DNA of 51,827 nucleotides from Candidatus Saccharimonadota bacterium. GTDB lineage: Bacteria; Patescibacteriota; Saccharimonadia; Saccharimonadales; UBA4665. This document shows, piece by piece, positions 1,157-21,900 of this stretch. The notes under the pieces are model-generated. The model worked only from the letters and a program-made list of their open reading frames with translations. It made no database searches and was not told where the DNA came from. The stretch covers positions 1 through 51,827 of the forward strand of contig JAICKY010000004.1 of NCBI GenBank assembly GCA_025927655.1. Direction: 5' to 3'. The number at the start of each line of letters is the position of its first letter. Positions within the stretch are counted from its first letter, which is position 1. A program made the position numbers and the translations under genes.

Positions 1157-2758
1157 ATGCAAGATATCAGCATCATCGGTGGGGGATTAGCAGGTGCCGC
1201 AATAGTAGGCTGTGGTTCATGGTGGTTCATGATCCGGCGCGGTAAGCGCAAAAGCTCTGCCAGCACCACTAAACTCGCCAGTAGTCTGCGCGATGCAAAG
1301 GCCAAGGGTGAAATCATCCTCGGTACTATTGAAGATGGTGTGGTATTTATGGATGAGCAGGGGACTATCCAGCTTTTCAACCCCGGTGCTGCCGCCATAA
1401 CCGGCTGGGACAGCGAAGATGCCGTGGGCCTCGACTGGAAATCGGTATTTTCATTCATAAACAAAAAGGGCGAACCGGTAACAGAGGATGACACACCGTT
1501 CGCACGAGCTCTCAGAACCGGACAAACAGTGCGCGACAACGAGGCGAACATCGTCAGCAAGTCAAACATGACGATTGCCACGAACTTTAGCGTCACCCCC
1601 ATAATCACCAACGCGCAGCCGACCGGACTGGTGGGTATTTTCCGCGATGTCAGCGCCGAACGGCAAGAAGAAAGCCAGCGGGCAGAATTCATCAGCACCG
1701 CCAGCCACGAAATGCGTACCCCCGTAGCAGCCATCGAGGGCTACCTGAGCCTGGCACTCAACGACAAAGTTGCCACTATAGACAGCCGCGCCAAAGACTA
1801 CCTGGAAAAAGCCCACGCCAGCACCAAACATTTGGGCGAGCTGTTTCAGGACTTGCTTACCAGTGCCAAGGCCGAAGACGGCCGCCTCACCAATCACCCG
1901 GAAGTCGTGGAAATGGGCGCATTTATGGAGCAGCTGACGAGCGACCTGCACTTTTCGGCGCAGAAAAAGAACCTGGGGATTGATTTTGTCATCGGTAATA
2001 ACACTATCATAGATAACAATGTTATAGATGCCAGCTCCCCCGTGTCGATGAGCGGCGGCGACAAAGTAATTCGTCCCTTGTACTACACGCAGCTCGACCC
2101 CGACCGTATCCGCGAAGTTATCACCAACCTGTTTGACAATGCCTGCAAATACACCGACCAGGGAAAGATTAGCCTAGGCCTGACCGGTAACGATAGCGTG
2201 GTCCAGTTGTACGTCCGTGACACTGGCCACGGTATTCCACCCGAAGATATCGGACACTTGTTCCAGAAGTTTTACCGCGTCGATAACAGCGCCACCCGCA
2301 CCATTGGCGGTACCGGCTTGGGTCTGTTCATCTGTCGCAAGATAGTCGAGCTATACCGCGGCCGGATATGGGTAGAAAGCACGCTTGGGCAGGGCAGTAC
2401 GTTCTATATAAACCTGCCGCGGCTCACCAGCCAGCAGGCCGAACGGATGATGAGCGAAGAACACGCCGCAGCCACCCAGGATGCAACCGCCATCCCTGTA
2501 CCAGCACAGCCCGCCGCGCCGGAGCCTGCCGCGCCCGCAGTTGTCCCAGAACCAGCGCCCGCTCCTGCACCAGCAGCCGCTCCAGTCGCAGCTCCGCTAG
2601 CTCCCGCTCCCGCCGCTCCAGTTCCCGCTGCACCAGCGCCCGCCGCTGAACCTATGGCCACGGCAACTGAACCAGCAGTTGCCGCCGCACCCGCGCCAGT
2701 CCCAGTACCCACGCCAACTTCACCGGTGGAACCTGTACCCACACCTCCTGCACCGTGA
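1157..2758 (+). CDS. Membrane-anchored PAS-domain sensor histidine kinase with Pro/Ala-rich C-terminal tail
   Basis: SHEMRTPVAAIEGYL H-box, NLFDNACKYT N-box, DTGHGIPPED and GGTGLGLFI G-boxes; N-terminal TM helix; PAPAP-rich tail. Confidence 0.9.
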   Translation: MQDISIIGGGLAGAAIVGCGSWWFMIRRGKRKSSASTTKLASSLRDAKAKGEIILGTIEDGVVFMDEQGTIQLFNPGAAAITGWDSEDAVGLDWKSVFSFINKKGEPVTEDDTPFARALRTGQTVRDNEANIVSKSNMTIATNFSVTPIITNAQPTGLVGIFRDVSAERQEESQRAEFISTASHEMRTPVAAIEGYLSLALNDKVATIDSRAKDYLEKAHASTKHLGELFQDLLTSAKAEDGRLTNHPEVVEMGAFMEQLTSDLHFSAQKKNLGIDFVIGNNTIIDNNVIDASSPVSMSGGDKVIRPLYYTQLDPDRIREVITNLFDNACKYTDQGKISLGLTGNDSVVQLYVRDTGHGIPPEDIGHLFQKFYRVDNSATRTIGGTGLGLFICRKIVELYRGRIWVESTLGQGSTFYINLPRLTSQQAERMMSEEHAAATQDATAIPVPAQPAAPEPAAPAVVPEPAPAPAPAAAPVAAPLAPAPAAPVPAAPAPAAEPMATATEPAVAAAPAPVPVPTPTSPVEPVPTPPAP

Positions 2759-2803: not shown

Positions 2804-4192
2804 GTGGCAAAAGTATTACTGGTCGAAGACGACAACAACTTACGAGAAATTTATCAAGCACGTCTATTGGCCGAAGGCTACGATATTGTAGCTGCCCAGA
2901 ACGGGGAAGAGGCGCTGGTAGTCGCTAAACAGAACAAGCCGGACCTTATCATATCTGATGTCATGATGCCGCGGATTTCCGGATTCGAGATGCTCGATAT
3001 CTTGCGCAATACCGAAGGGCTCAAGCAAACCAAGGTGATCATGCTGACCGCACTTGGCCAAACAGAAGACCAAAAGCGTGCCAGCAACCTCGGCGCCGAT
3101 AAATACCTGGTAAAGTCCCAAGTAACACTGGAAGACATTGTAAACGCCGCCAAAGAATTGCTAGCCGAAGACGGTGGAATCGCTGATGTGCCGCCCCCGC
3201 CAACTCCCGCCGCGCAGTCCGTCGCTCCCGCAGCCGCGCCAGCCACTATCGAGACTTCGGTTCCTGTGGCCGCAGCACCCCCGGAACCAACACCAGCGTC
3301 CGCTTCTGCAATGGAACCCGTTGCCGCCGCAATAACACCCATGCCTGTCATTGAACCTGTCGCCGCCGTGCCGGTAGTTGCCACACCAGCGCCGGAGCCT
3401 GCCGCGCCCGCAGTTGTCCCAGAACCAGCGCCCGCTCCTGCACCAGCAGCCGCTCCGGTCGCAGCTGACCCGGCGGCCAGCAGTCCAGCGCCAGCGCCTA
3501 CCACACCCGACCCGGCATCAGCAAATGATCAAGCCGCTTCGTCCAGCGCAACCGCAGCAGTCGACGCTGCCGCTCAGACCATGGCGGCCGAAGAGAAGGC
3601 GCTGGAAGATCAGATCGCCACCTACGCCAAAGAACCTGGCGTAGACCCGCCTGTAGTCGAACCCGCACCAACTGCTGCCGAGGCCAGCAACACCGCGGCA
3701 ATTACCGCAGCTGTTAACGAACTCAACACACCCGCCGCTCCAGAACCAATCCAGCCGCCAAGCGTAGTCAATGCTCCAGCGCCTGTACCCGAGCCAGCTG
3801 CACCTGTCACGCCGGTATCACCTGAACCTCCGGCAAACGCCGTAACCGTGCCGGTAGTTGCCACACCAGCGCCGGAGCCTGCCGCGCCCGCAGTTGTCCC
3901 AGAACCAGCGCCCGCTCCTGCACCAGCAGCCGCTCCGGTCGCAGCTGACCCGGCGGCCAGCAGTCCAGCGCCAGCGCCTACCACAGACACCGCCAGCGAC
4001 AACAATGTAACCGTAGCAGGCAAAAAGGTCATCCAACCCATTAGTGATCAAACTGCCAAACCAAACCTCGATGCGCTCCTCGCTAAGGAAGAATCCAACG
4101 CCCCAGCCGCACCAGCGCCAGGAGCAGCCGCAACGCCTCCCATGCCAGCTCACACCCCGGGCCAATCATTCGACCCAAGCAAAGCGCTCTAG
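2804..4192 (+). CDS. Response regulator receiver domain with ~330 aa Pro/Ala-rich tail
   Basis: VLLVEDDNNLREIY...DLIISDVMMPRISGFEML...VIMLTA...YLVKSQ receiver; GTG start; low-complexity tail. Confidence 0.9.
   Translation: MAKVLLVEDDNNLREIYQARLLAEGYDIVAAQNGEEALVVAKQNKPDLIISDVMMPRISGFEMLDILRNTEGLKQTKVIMLTALGQTEDQKRASNLGADKYLVKSQVTLEDIVNAAKELLAEDGGIADVPPPPTPAAQSVAPAAAPATIETSVPVAAAPPEPTPASASAMEPVAAAITPMPVIEPVAAVPVVATPAPEPAAPAVVPEPAPAPAPAAAPVAADPAASSPAPAPTTPDPASANDQAASSSATAAVDAAAQTMAAEEKALEDQIATYAKEPGVDPPVVEPAPTAAEASNTAAITAAVNELNTPAAPEPIQPPSVVNAPAPVPEPAAPVTPVSPEPPANAVTVPVVATPAPEPAAPAVVPEPAPAPAPAAAPVAADPAASSPAPAPTTDTASDNNVTVAGKKVIQPISDQTAKPNLDALLAKEESNAPAAPAPGAAATPPMPAHTPGQSFDPSKAL
3366..3505 (+). 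repeat. 140-bp exact direct repeat, copy 1, within response-regulator tail
   Basis: Identical to 3846-3985, offset exactly 480 bp. Confidence 0.95.
3846..3985 (+). repeat. 140-bp exact direct repeat, copy 2
   Basis: Identical to 3366-3505; a 68-bp subset also occurs at 2516-2583 in the kinase gene. Confidence 0.95.
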
Positions 4193-4194
4193 AT

Positions 4195-4269
4195 CTTGAG
4201 ACACCCGCAAGCGGGTTTCTCAACGCGCGGAGCGGCGAAATAGATTCGCCGTCTCTGGCTGCTCTTCCC
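4195..4269 (+). ncRNA. Putative structured motif H, copy 1 (two hairpins, conserved linkers)
   Basis: CTTGAGACACCCGCAAGCGGGTTTCTCAACGCGCGGAGCGGCGAAATAGATTCGCCGTCTCTGGCTGCTCTTCCC. Confidence 0.55.
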
Positions 4270-4321
4270 AAGGCTTCAATATCATTCTCATTTCGGACAA
4301 AAGTAGGGTAATCTGTAAACC

Positions 4322-12291: not shown

Positions 12292-12345
12292 GGCACAGGA
12301 AATTACTGCCGTCCCGGCAGGAGAACAGGGCTACCCCTCATCATC

Positions 12346-12407
12346 CCAAGACAAACCCTGCGGGTTTTTCTACGCGACGCCAGGCTATGCCTGGCTGCTA
12401 CTTTTCC
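12346..12407 (+). ncRNA. Putative structured motif H, copy 3
   Basis: CCAAGACAAACCCTGCGGGTTTTTCTACGCGACGCCAGGCTATGCCTGGCTGCTACTTTTCC; same two-hairpin layout as 4195-4269. Confidence 0.5.
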
Positions 12408-12607
12408 GCTACCGCTCCCAACGCTTCTCTATAGTAGGAGACTGAATAGGGTAGCTTTTTCACATTTTGTTCACTCTCCAACTTGTTATATAGTCAGTTT
12501 TTACAACACGAAGTAGACATAAGCGCTTAGTTTATGCTACTATATTTAATATCTCGATGGGGGATGTGTTGACTTTTAAGAGTAATAGTTTTATAGTAAG
12601 GGGCACT

Positions 12608-21470: not shown

Positions 21471-21751
21471 AAATGACAAGGTCACCTATTCAGCAGCCAA
21501 CTGTTTGTTTTTTGGATGTTTTTGTTTTTGTTGGTGTCAGAAGATATCGTATGAAAGTAAAGATGTTTAAGAGTTTAAACGAGGTCTGCATGAACAGGCC
21601 TGTGATACTTTCGATGGCTCCTGACGATTTGAGAGACTTATGTGTGAGGTGGAGTTTTGGGAGGTGTTTTATGGAAAGAACGAAAGGTTTTTAAAACGTG
21701 GTGCCTTTCTCTAGTCCACGTGTTGACTGCCGAATAGGTAACATCGTCAAG

Positions 21752-21824
21752 CTTGAGACACCTGCTTTGCAGGTTTCTCAACGCGCCGGCAAAATGGAAT
21801 ACATTTTGTCGGGCTGCTCTTCCC
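21752..21824 (+). ncRNA. Putative structured motif H, copy 2
   Basis: CTTGAGACACCTGCTTTGCAGGTTTCTCAACGCGCCGGCAAAATGGAATACATTTTGTCGGGCTGCTCTTCCC; stems covary relative to 4195-4269. Confidence 0.55.
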
Positions 21825-21900
21825 GTACAGTGGACGGTTGAGTGTTTTTCTATTCGTACTAAGTGCCGGATTGTTAAGGTGCTTTGAACTTAGGAACAGA

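What the first reader, a model, noticed from the sequence alone, without database searches (positions are those of the whole stretch)
4195..4269. New candidate structured RNA/DNA motif 'H' with covarying stems (copy 1)
Three intergenic copies (4195, 21752, 12346) share the layout stem1 / ACGCG linker / stem2 / GGCTGCTNYTTCC tail. Stem sequences change compensatorily: CACCCGC-GCGGG, CACCTGC-GCAGG, AAACCC-GGGTTT; stem2 GGCGAA-TTCGCC, CAAAATG-CATTTTG, GCCAGGC-GCCTGGC. The linkers (GACA, TTTCT, ACGCG, GCTGCT) stay constant. This indicates selection on structure. There is no U-tract and no ORF, and I recognise no known riboswitch or ribozyme.
Basis: seen in the sequence. Interest (0 to 1): 0.82.

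Follow-up and report, generated by a model that had tools for sequence, protein, structure and literature searches.

The report
Jumping two-hairpin DNA repeat in Saccharibacteria
The three "motif H" copies belong to an apparently undescribed family of roughly 80-base folded repeats (about 45 in this genome, scattered unevenly through one order of tiny Saccharibacteria) that behave like small mobile DNA elements sitting exactly at the edges of genes, rather than like a riboswitch or ribozyme.

Summary
A covariance model from 16 own-genome copies finds about 45 copies in this genome; I collected 204 distinct copies. Pairing covaries strongly in sequences not used for the model, and no Rfam family matches. 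In the genomes sampled the family occurs only in one order (Saccharimonadales), patchily.

The RNA reading (riboswitch/ribozyme) is not supported; a small mobile DNA repeat fits better. Some 23 copies are flanked by 15-54-nt direct repeats; at alaS seven relatives show the empty site with a single gene end. Other sites are empty or decayed in relatives. The stem-A end abuts gene boundaries: tRNA 5' ends (antisense), stop codons (sense), or just upstream of Shine-Dalgarno sites (antisense), so either strand may be the transcribed one.

New: the pyrimidine tail changes together with the purine arm of stem A (A-run equals T-run in 124 of 136 copies; best of 10,000 permutations 72), in parallel orientation, as in an intrastrand DNA triplex.

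No mobilising enzyme was found: reverse transcriptase is absent here and the RAYT-like transposases carry other palindromes. Confidence in mobility is moderate; the triplex and the mechanism of movement are inferred.

The parts
4194..4274 (+). Motif H copy 1 (whole model match), 1 nt after the stop codon (TAG 4190-4192) of a receiver-domain protein CDS
   Evidence: cmsearch 84.5 bits, E 5.7e-21; context
4196..4223 (+). Copy 1 stem A: TTGAGA-C-ACCCGC / GCGGGT-T-TCTCAA, loop AA, C.T mismatch 4202/4217
   Evidence: sequence, covariation
4224..4227 (+). Copy 1 linker CGCG
   Evidence: invariant in alignment
4228..4257 (+). Copy 1 stem B: CGG-AG-CGGCGAA / TTCGCCG-T-CT-CTG with unpaired T4252
   Evidence: sequence, covariation
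4262..4269 (+). Copy 1 pyrimidine tail CTCTTCCC, one T for the single A of arm GAGAC-A-CC; candidate third strand
   Evidence: tail/arm coupling
21751..21829 (+). Motif H copy 2; stem A 21753-21781, linker 21782-21785, stem B 21786-21812, tail 21817-21824; stem-A end abuts the 5' end of a conserved leader (minus strand)
   Evidence: cmsearch 69.5 bits; leader alignment
12344..12410 (+). Motif H copy 3, type B subtype; stem A AAACCC/GGGTTT 12353-12367, stem B GCCAGGC/GCCTGGC 12379-12395, tail CTACTTTTCC
   Evidence: cmsearch 33.1 bits, E 1.7e-6; type B alignment

Best explanation
Motif H is a family of short (core about 80 nt) non-autonomous mobile DNA repeats, MITE/REP-like, of the order Saccharimonadales. 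Each copy has hairpin A, a CGCG linker, hairpin B and a pyrimidine tail. Most likely working: the folded single strand (or an extruded form) is what is recognised, with the tail lying along the purine arm of hairpin A as a pyrimidine-type intrastrand triplex; an enzyme supplied in trans moves or copies it; insertion can duplicate 15-54 nt of target, which keeps genes whole when it falls in their ends. Copies persist where they harm neither coding nor processing, i.e. at gene edges, and old copies decay. Shown: structure, tail/arm coupling, copy number, patchiness, direct repeats, filled/empty sites, one decayed orthologous copy. Inferred: the triplex itself, single-strand recognition, the enzyme (not found), and selection as the cause of the placement.
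For: About 45 copies in the own genome, none in about half of the relatives. 25 of 199 flank pairs score above the best of 199 mismatched pairs (two of the 25 are mere tRNA similarity), with direct repeats of 15-54 nt close to the element. alaS: own genome has gene end - element - perfect 48-nt copy of the gene end; seven relatives have one gene end and no element. Copy-1 site: no element in nine relatives, decayed copy in a congener. rplJ leader: element here, none in six relatives. Same tRNA-Thr/Tyr spacer occupied in opposite orientations in different genomes. Another hairpin element is nested inside some copies. Tail/arm coupling 124/136 against permutation maximum 72, and in three separate sets.
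Against: No mobilising enzyme identified. Most copies, including the three in the window, show no direct repeats. The stem-A end lies within 10 nt of a gene boundary in 100 copies against 27 for the tail end, tighter than simple purging predicts. The same gene families carry it in different genera. In a few repeat pairs the differences are nearly all synonymous, which plain transposition does not explain. The last two C's of the tail do not fit a canonical triplex.
Confidence: 0.6

Rival explanations
1. A cis-acting RNA element (leader or 3'-UTR structure) that tunes tRNA, ribosomal-protein and other growth genes, and spreads between species by transformation.
For: Strict placement next to tRNA 5' ends, start regions and stop codons; recurrent at rplJ, atpG, rplD, trmD, tsf, ssb, groEL and recA across genera; strong covariation.
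Against: Opposite strands are transcribed in the two main contexts; the tail/arm rule is written in the + strand in both; copies absent at the same genes in close relatives and one decayed; direct repeats around copies; wobble pairs do not follow transcription direction (weak test).
Confidence: 0.17
2. An intrastrand-triplex repeat of the PIT/TM kind: not itself mobile, but a structure that stalls replication and so causes the duplications seen around it.
For: Hairpin plus coupled third strand; such repeats are multi-copy, intergenic and linked to rearranged loci (PMC4666352).
Against: Multiplication to about 45 copies and entry at empty sites needs an insertion process; a direct repeat on both sides of a single element is most simply a target duplication; hairpin B and linker conservation are not needed for a triplex.
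Confidence: 0.14
3. A transcription terminator or insulator acting in one direction (+ strand).
For: Between co-directional genes with at most 150 nt spare sequence the motif is antisense 68 times and sense 18 times, as if the sense orientation blocked transcription; T-rich stretch after hairpin A.
Against: Several sense copies are followed by an ordinary terminator hairpin with a T-run (sequences); termination does not need hairpin B, linker or coupled tail. May be a side effect that filters orientation.
Confidence: 0.09

Closest known systems
Small bacterial mobile repeats / MITEs (Correia/NEMIS, ERIC, RUP, CIR, RPE; PMC2229807, PMC10969869)
   Same: Under 200 bp, no protein, intergenic, many copies, strong folding, target duplications, nesting of elements; CIR also has two stem-loop arms joined by a linker.
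   Different: No terminal inverted repeats spanning the whole element, not A+T-rich, duplications of 15-54 nt instead of a few (QMITE2 7-9 bp in PMC10969869), placement abutting tRNA 5' ends and stop codons, tail coupled to a hairpin arm.
Intrastrand triplex repeats TM/PIT (PMC4666352)
   Same: Multi-copy intergenic hairpin plus a third strand on the same DNA strand; linked to rearranged loci.
   Different: Pyrimidine third strand, parallel, with a second hairpin in the connecting loop and variable arm length (the E. coli TM is G-rich class II with a fixed consensus); here the contact is supported by covariation; evidence of insertion.
REP/REPIN with RAYT (TnpA-REP) transposase
   Same: Short dispersed palindromic elements of single-strand type, near gene ends; RAYT-like genes exist in this genome.
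   Different: RAYT genes here are flanked by unrelated palindromes and not by motif H; 19 of 31 motif-bearing genomes lack a RAYT-like hit; direct repeats are not expected for Y1 transposition (own knowledge).
Integron attC sites
   Same: Folded single-strand sites with conserved unpaired bases, often directly after a stop codon.
   Different: Two separate hairpins, scattered single copies rather than cassette arrays, half of copies antisense at gene starts. Compared from memory only; attC boxes were not searched.

Membership tests
Small non-autonomous mobile repeat (MITE-like) | Short, multi-copy, non-coding, dispersed between genes | tested here: met
   about 80 nt, about 45 copies, intergenic
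Small non-autonomous mobile repeat (MITE-like) | Filled versus empty sites in relatives | tested here: met
   alaS, copy-1 site, rplJ
Small non-autonomous mobile repeat (MITE-like) | Target-site duplication | tested here: inconclusive
   direct repeats at about 23 of 199 copies, variable length, absent at most
Small non-autonomous mobile repeat (MITE-like) | Terminal inverted repeats shared with an autonomous transposon | tested here: not met
   element ends are GAGAC... and ...CTCTTTTCC, not inverted repeats; no parent transposon found. So it is filed only as MITE-like.
REP/RAYT system | Repeats flank the RAYT gene | tested here: not met
   nine RAYT loci carry other palindromes; model finds no copy at E<=0.1
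Intrastrand triplex repeat | Third strand matches hairpin purine arm in triplex register | tested here: met
   run-length coupling 124/136; G-rich arms with C-rich tails; final CC does not fit
Intrastrand triplex repeat | Triplex forms physically | not testable with these tools
   needs CD/NMR/footprinting
Riboswitch / leader RNA | Fixed orientation in the transcript of the controlled gene | tested here: not met
   sense after stop codons, antisense before tRNAs and start codons
Any Rfam family | Covariance-model match above gathering score | tested here: not met
Self-cleaving ribozyme | Cleavage activity | not testable with these tools
   no known ribozyme model matches

The most novel reading that the evidence does not exclude
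A mobile element moved as folded single-stranded DNA, in which the third strand of an intrastrand triplex is part of the recognised site and changes only together with the hairpin arm, which is aimed at the edges of transcribed units (above all tRNA 5' ends) and duplicates 15-54 nt on entry: a transposition system unlike IS200/605, integrons or DDE elements.
Probability: 0.22. Interest if true: 0.85.

Novelty: new variant of a known kind. Interest (0 to 1): 0.62.

Why it matters
Six full-text searches found no description of such a repeat in these reduced, mostly uncultivated bacteria. The family supplies natural covariation for a contact of the intrastrand-triplex kind, whose formation in vivo has been hard to show (PMC4666352). 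Its placement at tRNA, ribosomal-protein and alaS edges, with gene ends duplicated, shows how very compact genomes tolerate insertions, and gives a marker for recent insertion and exchange among Saccharibacteria.

Tried and rejected
Rfam at gathering and permissive thresholds: nothing. ORF through the element: frame not conserved. Phage origin: exact-pattern scan of IMG/VR finds none. RAYT/Y1 as mobiliser: other palindromes at those genes; co-occurrence only suggestive (12 of 16 RAYT-like genomes have the motif, 19 motif genomes lack it). Reverse transcriptase as mobiliser: absent from the genome with most copies. G.U versus A.C wobble asymmetry to decide RNA against DNA: result depended on how pairs were picked, so nothing firm is drawn. 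boxA antitermination: the tail contains TGCTCTTT, but its length follows stem A and it points away from the tRNAs. Two pattern matches in other phyla (L189, L207) are not supported by the model; two more (L204 'Doudnabacteria', L226 'Parcubacteria') are real copies, possibly mis-binned contigs. Direct repeats around tRNA-associated copies: none beyond tRNA-tRNA similarity, except a tRNA-Pro remnant in L194.

Full report
Observation. A scan of the window's own assembly (871 kb, 34 contigs) with the linker TTTCTNNACGCG showed that they belong to a larger set. Sixteen copies were aligned and modelled with a hand-set two-helix structure; already here 13 of 21 pairs change on both sides. The model gives 78 matches at E up to 5 in the own genome, about 45 of them credible separate copies; the window copies score 84.5, 69.5 and 33.1 bits. 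The third window copy belongs to a subtype (type B: AAGACAAACCC...GGGTTTTTCT, tail CTACTTTTCCGG, with conserved flanks of its own). Rfam gives nothing.

Structure. Stem A is GAGA-C-A(n)CC / GGT(n)-T-TCTC with a conserved C.T mismatch in most copies; a sub-class found mostly after stop codons has a fully paired stem A. Stem B has a CNG/CNG foot, an unpaired T and a freely varying upper stem. On copies from other genomes pairing and covariation are far above shuffled and slid controls. Those alignments were fitted to the model, which favours the structure somewhat, but an effect of 0.39-0.47 against 0.10-0.13 is not explained by that.

A third contact. The pyrimidine tail follows the purine arm of stem A in the same direction. 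Arms with 1, 2, 3 or 4 A's after GAGAC have tails with 1, 2, 3 or 4 T's after CTCT in 124 of 136 copies; permutations give 54 on average and 72 at most. The rule holds separately in the own genome (18/20), in relatives (53/61) and in GTDB copies (52/54). G-rich arms have C-rich tails (GAGAGGGG with CTCTCCCC or CTCACCCC; GAGAGGAGG with CTCTCCTCC). Antiparallel Watson-Crick pairing cannot produce this; a pyrimidine third strand parallel to the purine arm (T.A-T, C+.G-C) can. That is the layout of a pyrimidine-type intrastrand triplex with hairpin B in the connecting loop. The final CC of the tail faces C-G pairs and does not fit, so the triplex is inferred, not shown.

Distribution. 31 of 60 genomes (own included) have matches at E up to 0.1: 53 here, 23 at most elsewhere, 2 and 9 in the two congeners. 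Across the phylum 9 of 295 genomes have it, all in the same order. A pattern scan of GTDB genomes stopped at its limit with 112 stretches, nearly all labelled Saccharibacteria, among them the complete genome CP025011; none in IMG/VR.

Placement. Among 204 distinct copies the stem-A end lies within 10 nt of a gene boundary in 100, the tail end in 27. 53 copies lie within 10 nt upstream of a tRNA 5' end, antisense to it (mode 4 nt); 32 within 10 nt of the stop codon of a co-directional CDS; 46 within 40 nt of a start codon, antisense, often at 16-20 nt, just upstream of the Shine-Dalgarno sequence. Only three sit at a tRNA 3' end. In this genome 14 of 42 tRNA genes carry it. Between co-directional genes with at most 150 nt of spare sequence it is antisense 68 times, sense 18 times. 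The same gene families carry it in different genera (rplJ, atpG, rplD, trmD, tsf, ssb, groEL 3', recA 3'; gene names by my reading of the N- and C-termini). Copy 2 in the window abuts the 5' end of a leader conserved in four genera.

Mobility. Left and right flanks were compared by local alignment: 25 of 199 copies score above the best of 199 mismatched flank pairs; two of these are tRNA-tRNA similarity; the rest are nearly identical direct repeats of 15-54 nt close to the element. The repeats contain gene ends: the alaS 3' end in three genomes, msrA and tpiA 5' ends, Shine-Dalgarno/start regions. In the own genome alaS ends ...KAVLQ*, then comes the element, then a perfect 48-nt copy of the gene end running into ...KAVLV*; seven relatives have one alaS end and no element. 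At the copy-1 site nine relatives have no element and congener G002 has a decayed one directly after the same stop codon. At rplJ the element is present here and absent in six relatives. The spacer between tRNA-Thr and tRNA-Tyr is occupied in opposite orientations in different genomes. Some copies have another hairpin element nested in stem A. These are marks of insertion rather than of an inherited regulatory RNA. Odd points remain: most copies lack repeats, and in a few repeat pairs (L131, L209) the differences are nearly all synonymous, which suggests that exchange with a homologue from another strain took part.

Enzyme. RAYT-like Y1 transposases occur in 16 of 60 genomes including this one, 12 of them with the motif, but their flanks hold other palindromes. 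Reverse transcriptases are absent here. The mobiliser is unknown.

Literature. Six full-text searches found no description of this family. The closest kinds are small mobile repeats of bacteria (PMC2229807, PMC10969869) and intrastrand triplex repeats (PMC4666352). The library holds open-licence papers only, so absence is not proof.

Verdict. A real, apparently new structured repeat family; the riboswitch/ribozyme interpretation is unlikely; a mobile DNA repeat with a coupled third strand is the best account, at moderate confidence.

Noticed in passing
window 21540-21750, minus strand: Conserved non-coding leader next to motif copy 2, upstream of an rsmH-like gene: about 39 nt (CACCTCCCAAAACTCCACCTCACACATAAGTCTCTCAAA on the minus strand) identical in four genera, with repeated GTTGACTGCYGGWTAG units; no Rfam match.
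   Followed up: partly
L283 (own genome C17:2500-6500), L284-L291: RAYT-like Y1 transposase genes of about 200 aa, each flanked by its own palindromes (e.g. ggtcggacc, ggtccgtcc): a separate REP/RAYT system in Saccharibacteria.
   Followed up: partly
own genome C1:32933, C7:854, C26:8188; L085, L134, L107: A second palindromic element, about CCCCACAAAACAAGTTTTGTGGGGACCCC, nested inside stem A of several motif copies; in L085 the stem arm seems duplicated around it.
   Followed up: no
L131, L183, L209: Flanking direct repeats (msrA 5' end, alaS 3' end) whose two copies differ almost only at synonymous positions, hinting at replacement by a homologue from another strain.
   Followed up: no
window 2516-2593 and about 3389-3466: A 78-bp repeat, 99% identical, in proline/alanine-rich coding regions of two neighbouring ORFs.
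   Followed up: no
own genome C10:1627, C33:35316, C17:16486, C22:536: A possible third hairpin directly after the tail (e.g. CCCTTGGGAACAAGGG, GTCTGTGGAAGAC), sometimes followed by a second CTGCTCTTTTCC tail; the element may be longer than modelled.
   Followed up: partly
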